From Montifringilla adamsi (taxonomy: Eukaryota > Chordata > Aves > Passeriformes > Passeridae), in assembly GCA_017590115.1 (NCBI GenBank), contig JAGGNK010006002.1, positions 644,329 through 708,328 of the forward strand: a stretch of DNA of 64,000 nt, written 5' to 3'. The notes beneath the pieces are model-generated. The model saw only the letters and a program-made list of their open reading frames with translations, did no database searches and was not told the origin of the DNA. Below are positions 11,480-58,151 of the stretch, piece by piece. Each line of letters begins with the position of its first letter. Position 1 is the stretch's first letter. Both the position numbers and the translations under genes were made by a program.

Positions 11480-12300
11480 CCTGCCCAGCTCTTCCGTTGC
11501 TTTGCCGCTGCTCCGGGCTTTTTGCTGCGCTGTAGCTCCGCACGCCCTGGGACACTCCACTCGCGGTTGCAGCTACAGCTGCAGAGTTTCTGATACATCT
11601 CGTCTATGGGATGTTTGCTCATTCCTGCCGTTCCATCTTGCTGCATCTGAGGGTCCTGCTGAGACACCAGGATCGGCTGCCCCTGGGAGGTTTGTTGTTT
11701 GAGGAGATTTTATGATAATACTGTATTCCCCTATAATCTGCTTTATGCCCAGAAATGGATCCTGTAGCTTTAAGCTAGGTCTGGAAGAGGGAGGGAGCTG
11801 GGCACAGTTTGTGTTCAAGCTCTCATACTCTCCCGTGCTCAGCCTTGCAGCAGAGAGGGAGTTACATTCTTTGCTTTTAGCTAGCTTCTCCTTGTTAGCT
11901 GCCTGCTGAGGCACTAGGATCGGCTGCCCCTGGGAGGTTTGTTGTTTGAGGAGATTTTATGATAATACTGTATTCCCCTATAATCTGCTTTATGCCCAGA
12001 AATGGATCCTGTAGCTTTAAGCTAGGTCTGGAAGAGGGAGGGAGCTGGGCACAGTTTGTGTTCAAGCTCTCATACTCTCCCGTGCTCAGCCTTGCAGCAG
12101 AGAGGGAGTTACATTCTTTGCTTTTAGCTAGCTTCTCCTTGTTAGCTGAGGCAAGACATTTTCCTGGACTGCATACTGCAATCCTCCGGTGACTTCTGTG
12201 GCTTCTTCTGGAACTGTTCAGCTTCAGCTTCAGCTCCGAAAACCAGGCCATAGGTGGGACCCTTGTGGGAAATAGTAAAGGTAAGAGTACTTCCAGAAAG
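11480..12300 (+). mobile_element. ERV LTR fragment carrying a tandem duplication
   Basis: The segment 'ttttagctagctt...gttagctgaggcaagacattttcctggactgcatactgc' is homologous to the minus-strand reading of the LTR at 22435-23359 ('ttttagttagttt...agccaaggcagagaagttccctggactg'). This places it in the same LTR superfamily, in plus orientation. Its poly(A) end is missing, so it is truncated. It contains the 247-bp direct duplication listed separately. The 169-codon minus-strand frame here is antisense to the LTR and has no recognisable domain. Confidence 0.6.
11655..12148 (+). repeat. Tandem duplication, 2 x 247 bp
   Basis: Copy 1 is 11655-11901 and copy 2 is 11902-12148. By eye the copies differ at only two positions, near the left edge, and are otherwise identical. 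The near-identity within an otherwise decayed LTR points to a recent duplication, or to an assembly artefact that mimics one. Confidence 0.95.
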
Positions 12301-30452: not shown

Positions 30453-30599
30453 GAGGAAGATCTAAGAACTGATGGCATCGCTGCCACAAACATCTGCATC
30501 TGTCTGGTCTGCTGGGGCCGAAGTCTTCCTCCCTCCACACTCCCTGGGAGTGCTGCATGAAGCATCAGCACCAAGGCTAGGATTTGGTACCTGGCTTTG

Positions 30600-31977
30600 T
30601 GTGTTGGTATAACACAGCCATTTAACACAGCTGTTGGTTTTTTTGTTTGTTTTTGGGGGGTTTTTTTGAAGGGGAGGAACCACAGAGGTGGCGTCTGTGA
30701 AAAACTGCTAGAAACTTCCACTGTGTCCGACAGAGCGAATCTCCGATGGCTCTGAAGATGGACATGCTGCTGGCCCAATTAGAGAAGCTGGTAACGCCTC
30801 TGTGATTACATATTTTAAAAGACAATCAAGAAGCCCTTATGAGGGGTTGCGGGGAGTTGTGTTGTTGCCGTGGGCCGGCCGCCGGCCCGGCAATGGCCCG
30901 CAGCCAGCTTTGCCTGCCGGGCCGCCTCAGGCCTGCCGCCCTGAGGGCAGGGGCGGCGGCCACGGGAATGGTGGCGAGGGGTGTGCTGAGCGATTCCCCC
31001 ACACGGAGCCTGGGCGAGATCAACTTCTCAGCGTTGCAAAATCCTGCAGAAATCTTCGAACTGGTGGAGTTTGTTGGTAATGGTGCTTGGAGGGAGTAGG
31101 GTTTTTTCCTTTTAGAGAAAGAGGAGAAAGTGAGGACATGTGGCTGAAGACAACATAGCGACCCCACAGTCAGTGGAAGGAAGAGGGGCAGGAGGTGCTC
31201 CAAGTCTCTGCAGGCCGTGGTGAGGACTACAACACGGCAGTCTCGCTGTAATTCATGAAGTCCATGGTGGGATGCAGAGATCCACTTGCAGCCCGTGAGA
31301 AGAGGTGCTCAAGCTGGAGTGAGTGGATGCTAAAACGCTGTCATCTTGTGGGAGACTCGAGCAGAGCAAGAGAGCCCTGGCTTCCAGAGATAGAGAGGGC
31401 TTTTGCTTCCAGAGATAAAGGAAAAGGGCCCTTGCTTCCAAACTAGAGCAGCTTATACTTAAAAAGAGTACACCCTATGCACTAAAGTGATCCATGCTAT
31501 GCAGTTTTGGAAAGACTGCTTTGCCTGTGGGAGGACTCACCGCAGGTTGGGCAGGACTGCTACTTGTGACAATTTCAGCCACGTTGGAGAAGGTCACGGA
31601 GGGCTGTCTCCTGTGGGAAGGACCCTACGACTTAGCAGAAGAGACTTCTCTCCTGAAAAAATATTTTGAATGAAGAACTGACCAAAATTCCCACACCCTA
31701 TCTCCCTGTGCTGTCGGTGGGAAGGAGGGAGAGGATGGGGGGGAAAGGTGTTTTAGAGGCTTAGTTTATTCCTCATTATCCTCCTCTAACTCTGTTAATA
31801 ATAAATTTACTTTATACCTTTAAGTTTAAGCCTATTTTTCCCTTAGAGTGTTCTCTCCTAATCCCTATCTCAGTTCATGAGCCCTTTGGGGTGTTTTTCC
31901 CCCTCCTCTGCTCAGCTATAGGAGAGAAAAATGAATGGTATTTTGTGGATGCCTGGTGTTTGGCCGGTGTGGAACCA
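30600..31977 (+). mobile_element. Long solo LTR (1,378 bp) with 5-bp target duplication
   Basis: Begins TGTGTTGG and ends GGAACCA, flanked by CTTTG at 30595-30599 and 31978-31982. Segments such as 'ccacagaggtggcgtctgtgaaaaactgctagaaactt...cgcctctgtgattacatattttaaaag' and the AATAAA-bearing 3' part (31799-31804) fit one avian LTR family that I know from memory. The span 30838-31100 is GC-rich, unlike the rest, and looks like an insertion into the LTR body. Near 31371-31441 a short segment ending 'cttgcttcc' or 'gcttccagagata' repeats three times. No gag, pol or env sequence is present. Confidence 0.8.
30839..31099 (+). pseudogene. TNIK: TNIK-like N-terminal fragment inside an LTR
   Basis: An 86-codon open frame starts at ATG 30839. 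Residues 51-82 (30989-31084) read SDSP-RSL-EI--SAL--PA-IFELVE-VGNG and agree with the N-terminus of TNIK (TRAF2- and NCK-interacting kinase, STE20/GCK family) at about 24 of 32 positions. TNIK fits better than MINK1 or MAP4K4 because of the SDSP start and the E in the SL-EI segment. The match ends inside the glycine-rich ATP loop (GNG kept, third glycine lost), followed by a stop, so no kinase can be made. The 130 bp upstream is CpG-rich like a 5' UTR. If, as I recall, the first intron of this gene family falls after the SALR codons, the fragment came from spliced RNA. It sits wholly within the LTR. Confidence 0.72.
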
Positions 31978-31982
31978 CTTTG

Positions 31983-34900
31983 GACACTTTGGCAGAAGAC
32001 GGAATCTTTTTCTCCTGCAGAAGGATGCACTGAGATGCAGCAGAGTGACTTGGATGTATTCATCCAAATCATCTCAAGCAGAGCAGACATGGAAAATCCC
32101 ACTTTCCAGCCTCAGCAAATAATGCATTCCATAGACCCAACATCCCACCCTGTTTGCCAAGCACTGCATTTTTGTTTGCTCTCACTTTCAGTGAGAGGCT
32201 AAATAACCCCTAATTACAGCTGAAATGAGAGCAACCATGGCTTCTTCAGCCATCAACATGGGGAAACCAGCTGGAAAGGAAGAGGTGCTCGCAGCCATGT
32301 CAGGGATTCAGGCTGATGTTTCAAGCTGTCACTTTTCCAGTATCCCATGGCCAGGGCATTGTGTTTGGCTGTGGATTTCTATGCCAGGAGGACAGGATGG
32401 TAAGACTGAAGCCTAAATGGGGAATGTTGACCCTACAAACCCAAAAATGCATCTCCCGTTTGCTCTCTGATTTGCGATTTCTCTCCTGCTCTATGTGCCA
32501 GACATACCAGGCCCTGTGAATTTAAGCAGAGTCTTACAAGAGGCTTCCTCCCAAGTGCTCCTGCCCCATGTGTAACCCACTTACTGCACTCAAGACTCAT
32601 CACAGAAATGAGCAGTGGGGATCACTTTAAGTGCCATCTATGAACACAGAAGATGTTGCTCCTGTTTCTCTGCAAGAGCCTCTCTGGCAGATGACATGAT
32701 CCTGAAAACTGATTTTATCAAGCTTAATATGCCACAATATTCCTGTGTGCTTGGCAGATGCACCTACAGTCATGAAAATTACTCAGTGAGGATTGAAAAG
32801 ATTATCACTGAAGAGCAGAGACCAGCCTTAATTCTGCCCTGGGATACCCCAGGTGCCACCAGCCCAGGACTGAGCACTGCAGTTGTTCCCTACCAGGGCT
32901 CTCTGCCCTTTACCACCTAAAAATCCTAATCCCCCCCAGCCAGAGGGCAGGGAAGGGTGTGGCACACACAGCCCTGCTCAGCCAGTTCTCATGCAGATGA
33001 ACGATCCTATTTGATGTGATGACATAGACAGCAGCTGAGGCCATCTCCCAGCTGCTTTAGGGGCAAAGGCAAGCCCTAAGCCTGACAGGAATAATCTACA
33101 TCTGAAGTGGGAGAGAGAAGGAAGCTGCCTAATGATCAACCCTGGGCTAGTAATTACTTAGAGCATTCATAATCGTCCCCCACAACCCCTCCCCTGCATT
33201 AAACAGGAAATATGCAGCACGCAAAGAGCAGCAGGAGACTTGGCATGCCAGGGGTGAAACCTCAGCAGGACCAGCTGGGCTAGTGTGCAGGGATTGTGAG
33301 AGGGATTCAGGCCCAGGGATGGCCTCGGGTCCTAAAATATGAGTGCAAAGCCCTGCTGGGCTTTTGGTTTGTACCTAGGTACGTTTGCAATGAAGCCTGC
33401 TTCCCCTCTGAAAGAGTGAGAGCAATGTGGCATGTGGAGGGTACCCAGGGTGAGAATCGCCATTTTTGCAATCCACAGGCGCAACACCCCAGCAAAGCTC
33501 AGACCTTAAAAGTTAGGAAGAAGCTGCCCAAATAGCAACCAACGTTGCTGCTCTTCCTGGGAAATTAAATCCCCACACAGAGAAGTTTCTTTTCATTTGG
33601 TCAAAACCTTCTCCTCTGATTCTAATCAAAGCCTCACACTCTGCCTTGCTTTCTCCCTGGCAGTAGTGGGGTCACTAGGGATATCTTGGCAGGAAATTTC
33701 TAAAGGAAATGTCTTTCAGAACAACTCTTTGTGGTGAGAATATATCTACCTCATCAAAATGTCTTGTTCCCCCTTTTATCTTTAAACAAAACCTGCCCAG
33801 ATGTGCGCTGTGCATCTGCACCAGGCTGCACACACTGCTGAGCCTGTGGCTCACAAGAGCCCCGGAGAGGAATCCAGGCATTTGCTACCCTCTGCTGTCC
33901 TTTTCCCGCTATCTCACCTCCCTCTGGCAGAAGCCACCGCTATTTTCCTCCCTCCGCTATGTCCCTGTGTCACTCGCCATATGGGCATCATCATCCTGCA
34001 AATCCTGCACCTGAGTCTCTCCAGGTGCCTTCAGGCCGAGCCTCCTGTCCCCTCAACCCTCTGCTTCCCCCAGACCACCCAGACCCATGTCTCAGATATA
34101 ATATCCAAAATACAGAGTAGCTGTGCTTCCCTTCACCCTCAGCCTGCTCTTTCACACTCTTCTTTCTGCTCCCCAGCTGGTCCTCCTGTTCCTTCTTCTA
34201 CTTTTACGCTGCTTCTTCCTCTGCATTGCTCACAAATATTGAGCCCATGGGAGAGCTGGACTCTCCTGAGCACTGAAAGCCCTTCTCAGGTCTCAGAGAA
34301 TAGCCTGACACCACCAGGGTTAATCCTGCCTTTAACAGCTCTTAGTTTTCACAGGGTAAAACAAGCCAAGGGCTAATGCAAAATGCCCACCAATCCCAGA
34401 TCCCTCGTTTCCAGCCCTGGAGCGGTGTAGAAACTACTATCAATTCTTATTTATACATGGAGTTAGCATAAGGAGGTAACTCACTTTGCTCCTTCAGAGG
34501 GAGGGAGGTTAATTCCTACTCAGGAGAACATGGGATGGTTTTTCCATGTACTTCCTGAGGCACTGGTTGTTCCCTTTGCAAGACAAGCACAAGAATAACA
34601 AACACTCTAAGGTGGTAAGAAAGTGAATCCGTATTCTTGGCATTTTCCTATGGATGAGCCAAGTTCAGTTTTGCATGTGAGCTGGAATTCTGTATTTCAA
34701 GCAGGAATTTCTTGGCTATGTAGGAAGGGTATCCCTCCTCCTGCCACCACAGCACATATTCAGTGACTGCTAAACTCATCTGAGAACTCACTAACAAATC
34801 CCTTAATGAGCTGATGATATTAAAATAAATGCAAAACCAGGGAATTTCAGAAATGTGGCACCTGCCTTCGATCATTTATATTTTTAGCCTGGTTTCCCCA

Positions 34901-57193: not shown

Positions 57194-58151
57194 TCACAGA
57201 ATCATCCAGGTTGGAAGAGACCTCCAAAGTCATTGAGTCCAACCTGTAACCAATCCCCACCTTGTTACCCAGACCAGAGCCCTGAGTGTCACGTCCAGGC
57301 CTTCCTGGGACACCTCCAGGGATGGGAACTCTACCACCTCCCTGGGCAGCCCCTTCCAAGGCCTGACCACCTTTTCCATGAAGGAATTCTCCCTAATGTC
57401 CTACTTAAACCTCCCTTGGAGGCCACTTCCTCTTGTTCTGTTGCTCCCTGGGAGCAGAGCCTGACCCCCACCTGGTAGTACCCTCCTATCATGGATTTGT
57501 TGATTAGACAAATTGTAGGTTAGACAAAATTCTGGCAGAGCCAGAAGGTTCCCCCTGAGCCTCCTTTTCTCCAGGCTGAGCCCCACTCCCTAGCCCCCTC
57601 CCCACCCTCCCCCCAGCTCCCCCAGCTGCTCCTGGGGCTCCAGCCCCTTCCAAGGTCTGTTCCCTTCCCAGCCCCTCAATGTCTCTCTCACCATGAGGGG
57701 CCCAGAACTGAACACAGAACTTGAGCCATGAAGGAATTCTCCCTAATGTCCTACTTAAACCTCCCTTGGAGGCCACTTCCTCTTGTTCTGTTGCTCCCTG
57801 GGAGCAGAGCCTGACCCCCACCTGGTAGTACCCTCCTATCATGGATTTGTTGATTAGACAAATTGTTGATTAGAAAAAATTCTGGCAGAGCCAGAAGGAT
57901 CCCCCTGAGCCTCCTTTTCTCCAGGCTGAGCCCCACTCCCTAGCCCCCTCCCCACCCTCCCCCCAGCTCCCTCAGCTGCTCCTGGGGCTCCAGCCCCTTC
58001 CAAGGTCTGTTCCCTTCCCAGCCCCTCAATGTCTCTCTCACCATGAGGGGCCCAGAACTGAACACAGAACTTGAGGTGTGACCTCAGCAGTGCCCAGCAC
58101 AGGGGAACACTCAGCAGGACCCTGGTCCTGCTGCCACACTATTTTTGATAC
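57194..58151 (-). mobile_element. CR1 LINE with internal tandem duplication
   Basis: Starts 'tcacagaatcatccaggttggaagagacctcc' and ends after 'gtgtgacctcagcagtgcccagcacaggggaacac...ctgctgccacactatttttgatac', the normal order of a long CR1 3' region. The middle is present twice (57376-57725 and 57726-58075). Confidence 0.95.
57376..58075 (-). repeat. Tandem duplication, 2 x 350 bp, within CR1
   Basis: Copy 1 is 57376-57725 and copy 2 is 57726-58075. I count five substitutions and no length change in 350 bp. Both start 'ccatgaaggaattctcc' and end 'cacagaacttgag'. Confidence 0.96.

What the first reader, a model, noticed from the sequence alone, without database searches (positions are those of the whole stretch)
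30839..31099. A TNIK-like kinase N-terminal fragment is carried inside an LTR
Within a 1,378-bp LTR bounded by CTTTG duplications, a GC- and CpG-rich 260-bp block encodes 32 residues that agree with the TNIK N-terminus at about 24 positions, then breaks off inside the ATP glycine loop. The open frame of 86 codons is kept from an upstream ATG. A host 5' exon inside an LTR means either capture of a spliced host RNA during reverse transcription or a later insertion. If other genomic copies of this LTR share it, the fragment has been amplified by the retroelement and its CpG-rich part may serve as a promoter.
Basis: partly seen in the sequence, partly recalled or inferred. Interest (0 to 1): 0.85.

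Follow-up and report, generated by a model that had tools for sequence, protein, structure and literature searches.

The report
Kinase mRNA piece inside an LTR
Long ago an endogenous retrovirus in this (probably bird) genome picked up the start of a spliced host kinase (TNIK) messenger RNA in its terminal repeat and copied it around the genome; the copies are now decayed, so this is a clear record of gene-piece capture rather than a working gene.

Summary
Window 30842-31096 derives from TNIK mRNA (24 of 35 residues identical, E=6e-8). In the same genome native TNIK exons 1 and 2 lie about 26.6 kb apart, but LTR copies carry them fused, preceded by about 230 nt of TNIK 5' UTR, without intron sequence: the source was spliced RNA. 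The insert stops 9 nt before the end of exon 2. My hand list has 72 carrier places, 34 of them read as sequence. Related LTRs lack the insert at that site, and filled copies have about 9 bp of LTR (CAGTTTTTC) on both sides. One branch, 100/100, separates 31 carriers from 8 empties. Best explanation: one capture by template switching in reverse transcription, then amplification as an LTR subfamily. Codon positions differ only mildly among copies, CpGs have decayed, and this copy has lost TNIK's ATG; the 86-codon frame is incidental. Capture of host mRNA by LTR elements is known; a piece built into U3 and spread by the LTR is an unusual variant. Promoter use, age and distribution were not tested.

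The parts
30595..30599 (.). 5' target-site duplication CTTTG of the solo LTR
30600..31986 (+). solo LTR, 1,387 bp, TGTGTTG...GACA, with a 5-bp duplication (ERVL type)
   Evidence: own-genome copies end at the same place; TSD test 8 of 20 loci against 9 of 380 mismatched pairs; no second copy in the 64-kb window; 5 bp = ERVL by the convention in PMC6523648
30659..30829 (+). upstream U3 segment shared by filled and empty LTRs
30842..30982 (+). TNIK 5' UTR-derived, CpG-rich part; about 75 nt of the native UTR have no match in this copy
   Evidence: match to native TNIK upstream of its ATG; junctions; boundaries approximate
30983..31039 (+). TNIK exon 1 coding part (57 nt), start codon now GTG
   Evidence: native exon 1 C302:4290566-4290622
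31040..31096 (+). TNIK exon 2, first 57 of 66 nt, stops in the glycine loop
   Evidence: native exon 2 C302:4263934-4263999
31097..31108 (+). place of the right copy of the short LTR duplication (CAGTTTTTC in well-kept copies; here TAGGGTTTTTTC, 3 mismatches at best)
31802..31807 (+). AATAAA, the likely polyadenylation signal of the LTR
   Evidence: read from sequence
31987..31991 (.). 3' target-site duplication CTTTG

Best explanation
An ERV of ERVL type co-packaged a spliced TNIK mRNA. During minus-strand synthesis in U3 the reverse transcriptase jumped from the viral RNA to TNIK mRNA at GGGCAG in exon 2, copied back through exon 1 and about 230 nt of 5' UTR, then jumped back to the viral RNA about 9 nt downstream of where it had left. 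That put a sense-strand TNIK insert of about 344 nt into U3, flanked by a duplicated CAGTTTTTC. Because U3 at the 3' end is the template for both LTRs in the next cycle, the insert became a fixed part of an LTR subfamily, which spread to tens of loci, split into at least two lineages (this window's, B, looks derived) and then decayed; the copies seen are solo LTRs. Shown: spliced source, same insertion site, empty sites, flanking duplication, amplification. Inferred: the two template switches and their place in reverse transcription.
For: Native TNIK exons 1 and 2 are about 26.6 kb apart, yet fused in LTR copies; native spliced sequence matches copies over up to 342 nt, including 5' UTR; an insert match was found in 34 of 40 distinct loci; native intron sequence finds nothing in those 40 loci. 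The 40 top rows with an empty-LTR query, its own locus included, run unbroken across the site, and 8 empties read as sequence show it uninterrupted (chosen for that). The left flank holds CAGTTTTTC with at most 2 mismatches in 21 of 30 copies (random 12.8%) and at most 1 in 9 of 30 (random 2.1%); the right flank with at most 1 mismatch in 24 of 34. One branch, 100/100, separates 31 carriers from 8 empties. No poly(A) tract, and the break is inside exon 2, which speaks against LINE-type retroposition. LTR-mediated capture by template switching at microsimilarities is a described route (PMC5408686, passages seen), with a bird example in parrots (PMC8854603, passage seen).
Against: The left duplication has more than 2 mismatches in 9 of 30 testable copies, this window included, and 4 of 34 had no anchor; a first, cruder test found it with at most 1 mismatch in only 5 of 22. 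With midpoint rooting the empty clade sits inside the carriers, so empties could be precise losses between the direct repeats; the native-rooted insert tree fits the capture order but its base is an unresolved star. Of the 8 empties, L034 no longer shows the CAGTTTTTC motif. No provirus with internal genes was found, so the ERV's own reverse transcriptase is inferred. The native locus has an N gap just beyond the 5' end of the homology, so the true 5' breakpoint relative to TNIK's transcription start is unknown.
Confidence: 0.85

Rival explanations
1. A TNIK cDNA fragment made by another enzyme (a LINE such as CR1, or break repair) was inserted into one integrated LTR, and that provirus was then amplified.
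For: The roughly 9-bp flanking duplication also looks like a staggered-cut target duplication. A section heading of PMC3136929 says that retrocopies of non-mammalian chordates may be mainly produced by LINE1 elements (outline and abstract seen).
Against: No poly(A); the fragment is internal at its 3' end, stopping at nt 57 of 66 of exon 2. It must also have hit the LTR of a provirus that stayed active.
Confidence: 0.12
2. Chimeric splicing: TNIK exons spliced to an acceptor in the LTR, and the hybrid RNA was reverse transcribed.
For: A polypyrimidine tract and AG (TTTTTCTTCTAG) directly follow the insert in well-kept copies.
Against: That tract is retained after the insert; splicing at its AG would have removed it. 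The TNIK side breaks inside exon 2, not at its donor.
Confidence: 0.02
3. Among the LTRs seen here the insert is ancestral, and the present empty LTRs arose by precise deletion between the direct repeats. (This concerns the order of loss and gain; it could be true together with the capture mechanism.)
For: The midpoint-rooted tree nests the empties among carriers; deletion between short direct repeats is common in reverse transcription (recalled).
Against: The direct repeats themselves need an earlier empty target. In the insert tree native TNIK joins in the unresolved lineage A, the lineage in which the empties also attach in the body tree (82/85, weak), and B is the derived group.
Confidence: 0.2
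4. The match is chance or a simple genomic duplication of TNIK.
For: None found.
Against: E=6e-8; the match to native TNIK extends through about 230 nt of UTR; intron sequence is absent; dozens of copies share one site.
Confidence: 0.01

Closest known systems
LTR-mediated retroposition of host mRNA (Tan et al. 2016, seen only as a citation; review PMC5408686, passages seen)
   Same: Partial, intronless host mRNA joined to an LTR element, attributed to template switching at microsimilarity.
   Different: Here the piece lies inside U3 of the LTR itself and was amplified to dozens of loci as a subfamily, instead of being one retrocopy between LTRs.
Oncogene-transducing retroviruses (recalled)
   Same: Host mRNA built into a retroviral genome and carried with it.
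   Different: Here the piece is too short to encode a kinase domain and lies in the LTR, not in the coding region; no clear sign of coding selection among copies.
ERVL-type solo LTR families of songbirds (PMC6523648, passages seen)
   Same: TG...CA ends, 5-bp duplication, copies mostly solo LTRs.
   Different: Carries a spliced host exon pair in U3; whether this family already has a name in a repeat library could not be checked.

Membership tests
ERVL-type LTR | 5-bp target-site duplication | tested here: met
   8 of 20 loci with both ends located have an exact 5-bp duplication at canonical ends, against 9 of 380 mismatched pairs; convention from PMC6523648
ERVL-type LTR | TG...CA ends and AATAAA | tested here: met
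   ends; AATAAA read in the window only
ERVL-type LTR | linked ERVL gag/pol internal region | tested here: inconclusive
   no shared internal flank among 36 distinct loci with 0.6-1.5 kb of 3' flank; longer flanks not fetched
LTR-mediated retroposition | spliced host mRNA source | tested here: met
   exon 1-exon 2 fusion, native intron about 26.6 kb, no intron match in 40 loci
LTR-mediated retroposition | partial mRNA, no poly(A), breakpoint inside an exon | tested here: met
LTR-mediated retroposition | short homology or overlap at the switch points | tested here: inconclusive
   CAG shared at the 3' junction, but both CAGs are kept; about 9-nt re-copied overlap
LINE-type processed pseudogene | 3' poly(A) end | tested here: not met
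   insert followed directly by LTR sequence CAGTTTTTC
TNIK kinase gene | kinase domain | tested here: not met
   stops at TYGQ in the glycine loop; no Pfam hit

The most novel reading that the evidence does not exclude
The captured TNIK 5' UTR, very CpG-rich when acquired, worked as a promoter or enhancer module that gave the LTR host-like (for example germ-line or neural) expression, drove the subfamily's spread, and left TNIK-derived control sequence near many host genes.
Probability: 0.1. Interest if true: 0.8.

Novelty: new variant of a known kind. Interest (0 to 1): 0.55.

Why it matters
It is an unusually complete fossil of host-gene capture: donor gene, empty target, filled target, junctions and descendants all sit in one genome. 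It shows that a piece of host mRNA can become part of an LTR's U3 and be copied with it for the life of an ERV subfamily. It is also a practical warning, since such LTRs can be mistaken for kinase exons.

Tried and rejected
Open reading frame as a real gene: differences between copies by codon position 1/2/3, CpG columns excluded, are 0.167/0.159/0.201 within A, 0.266/0.261/0.339 within B and 0.271/0.251/0.333 between them (copies with under 12 gapped columns; pairs are not independent). The third-position excess is mild and I do not take it as selection; several copies have stops or no ATG. The pooled third-position excess against native TNIK (398 against 244 and 244) is what constraint on native TNIK, CpG positions and shared ancestry would give.

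Proviruses: none found by shared flanks (36 distinct loci on the 3' side, 34 on the 5' side). Two weak 3' flank matches between different loci (73 and 198 nt, 71-75%) look like ordinary interspersed repeats.

An exact 41-nt match to the block in viral contigs: 0. Rfam at gathering scores and the tRNA scan: nothing. Pfam scan of ten stop-to-stop frames elsewhere in the window, out of 39 of at least 130 aa: nothing.

Literature: no paper linking TNIK to an LTR was seen in the listings of searches, nor LTR-internal host capture in those of 39, 43, 53 and 54; listings only, in one open-access library, and repeat libraries could not be searched.

Rows dropped: L076, L081, L084 (same loci as L016, L019, L027) throughout; from the tree also L017 (internal duplication) and L006, L037, L038, L080 (partial LTRs). 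L022 and L030 fall in the window's lineage by their LTR body, but no insert was detected in them.

Carrier count: the list (69 places) had left out L023 and two places; the recount gives 72 places on 53 contigs, 68 without four weak rows. It is no census: each search scored only its best candidates.

Age: end branches of about 0.12 changes per site would mean tens of millions of years at recalled avian rates; not calibrated here.

Full report
What is there. The block 30839-31099 encodes, in its last 38 codons, a peptide that matches the TNIK N-terminus at 24 of 35 aligned residues (E=6.3e-8; MAP4K4 and MINK1 weaker).

The LTR. Copies elsewhere in the genome share the element (86 matches from 40 scored of 866 candidate places). 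Well-kept copies begin TGTG and end AACCA-GACA, followed by a 5-bp duplication (exact in 8 of 20 loci with both ends located, against 9 of 380 mismatched pairs). By that rule the window's LTR is 30600-31986, flanked by CTTTG at 30595-30599 and 31987-31991. Apart from loci fetched twice, no two loci share flanks that would mark an internal region (36 distinct loci, 0.6-1.5 kb of 3' flank), and the 64-kb window holds no second copy, so I read the copies seen as solo LTRs. A 5-bp duplication is the ERVL convention (PMC6523648, passage).

The donor. Native TNIK lies on contig C302: exon 1 coding part at 4290566-4290622 (19 of 19 residues) and exon 2 at 4263934-4263999, ending GGGCAGGTCTATAAG before a GTAAG donor. 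The intron between them is about 26.6 kb. The paralogue on C70 encodes MANDSPAKSLVDIDLSSLR, which is MAP4K4 (name recalled); the one on C2 was not named. For the exon 2 part, TNIK is the closest of the three in 31 of 34 copies (C2 in 1, ties in 2).

What was captured. Spliced native TNIK, from about 230 nt before the ATG to nt 57 of exon 2, matches LTR copies over up to 342 nt in one piece (76% in L019, 77% in L016, 82% over 261 nt in L007). An insert match was found in 34 of 40 distinct loci; the six without are L022, L030, L034, L035, L037 and L038. These loci were fetched with queries that contain the insert or its peptide, so this is not a frequency. Native intron sequence (1.5 kb each of intron 1 start, intron 1 end and intron 2 start) finds nothing in the 40 loci. 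A hand-made list gives 72 carrier places on 53 contigs, 68 without four weak rows.

Empty and filled sites. L034, L035 and L085-L090, the last six picked because one search showed them unbroken, continue straight through the site. L035 reads GTGCAGTTTTTCTTCTAGTCAG, and L019 reads GTGCAGTTTTTC-[TNIK]-CAGTTTTTCTTCTAGTCAG. With the empty L035 as query, each of the 40 top rows, its own locus included, spans the site unbroken; one carrier (C375) appears lower in that list; the list is biased to empties by the query. The left repeat is present with at most 2 mismatches in 21 of 30 testable copies (12.8% in random segments) and at most 1 in 9 of 30 (2.1%); 4 of 34 had no anchor. The right repeat has at most 1 mismatch in 24 of 34. 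In the window the left repeat is no longer recognisable and the right one has 3 mismatches.

History. A tree of the LTR body without the insert puts 31 carriers and 8 empties on the two sides of one branch (100/100). A tree of the insert rooted on native TNIK puts this window's lineage B (11 rows, 100/97) as a group of its own beside an unresolved lineage A (23 rows). Gain in an empty LTR, spread as A, then origin of B is the simplest order. Midpoint rooting of the body tree would instead make the present empties secondary losses; I give that 0.2.

How it works. The insert is spliced, sense-strand, without poly(A), and broken inside an exon, with a short re-copied stretch of viral sequence. 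That is what two template switches during reverse transcription would leave. The intermediate steps are inferred. Template switching between LTR elements and co-packaged mRNA is described in PMC5408686 (passages), and a bird case (DYNLRB1 in parrots) in PMC8854603 (passage).

Function now. The native piece has CpG observed/expected 1.10; its LTR copies of more than 250 nt have 0.12 to 0.75; the window's insert 0.71 against 0.45 and 0.26 for the LTR on either side. The window copy has thus kept more CpG than most, but one copy is not evidence of use. Third codon positions differ only mildly more than first and second among copies, the window has GTG in place of TNIK's ATG, and the 86-codon frame begins at the insertion junction. 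I read the peptide as non-functional. Promoter use is untested.

Verdict. It is a clear case of a known process in an unusual place: host mRNA built into an LTR and multiplied by it.

Noticed in passing
window 11655-12148: Two head-to-tail copies of a 247-bp unit, 99% identical: a recent tandem duplication.
   Followed up: no
window 57376-58075: Two head-to-tail copies of a 350-bp unit, 98.6% identical.
   Followed up: no
window 30659-30829: This upstream U3 segment is 71-91% identical to its relatives, often 80-89%, while longer matches to the rest of the LTR are mostly 67-78%; reason unknown, perhaps constraint while the ERV was active.
   Followed up: no
G000:C557 at about 307.6, 322.5 and 365.2 kb (L018, L020, L031): Three carrier LTRs on one contig with very short branches in the body tree (0.008-0.034), probably local duplication; yet the 5' part of the insert in L018 and L031 is unlike that of L020 (CpG o/e 0.75 in L031 against 0.12 in L020), as after gene conversion.
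   Followed up: no
L078 (C57:876615) and L079 (C240:81773): Inserts are identical although the flanks do not match and the LTR bodies lie on branches of 0.13 each: gene conversion, a mosaic or an assembly effect.
   Followed up: no
window 31978-31982: An internal CTTTG just before GACA mimics the target-site duplication and misplaced the LTR end by 9 bp.
   Followed up: yes
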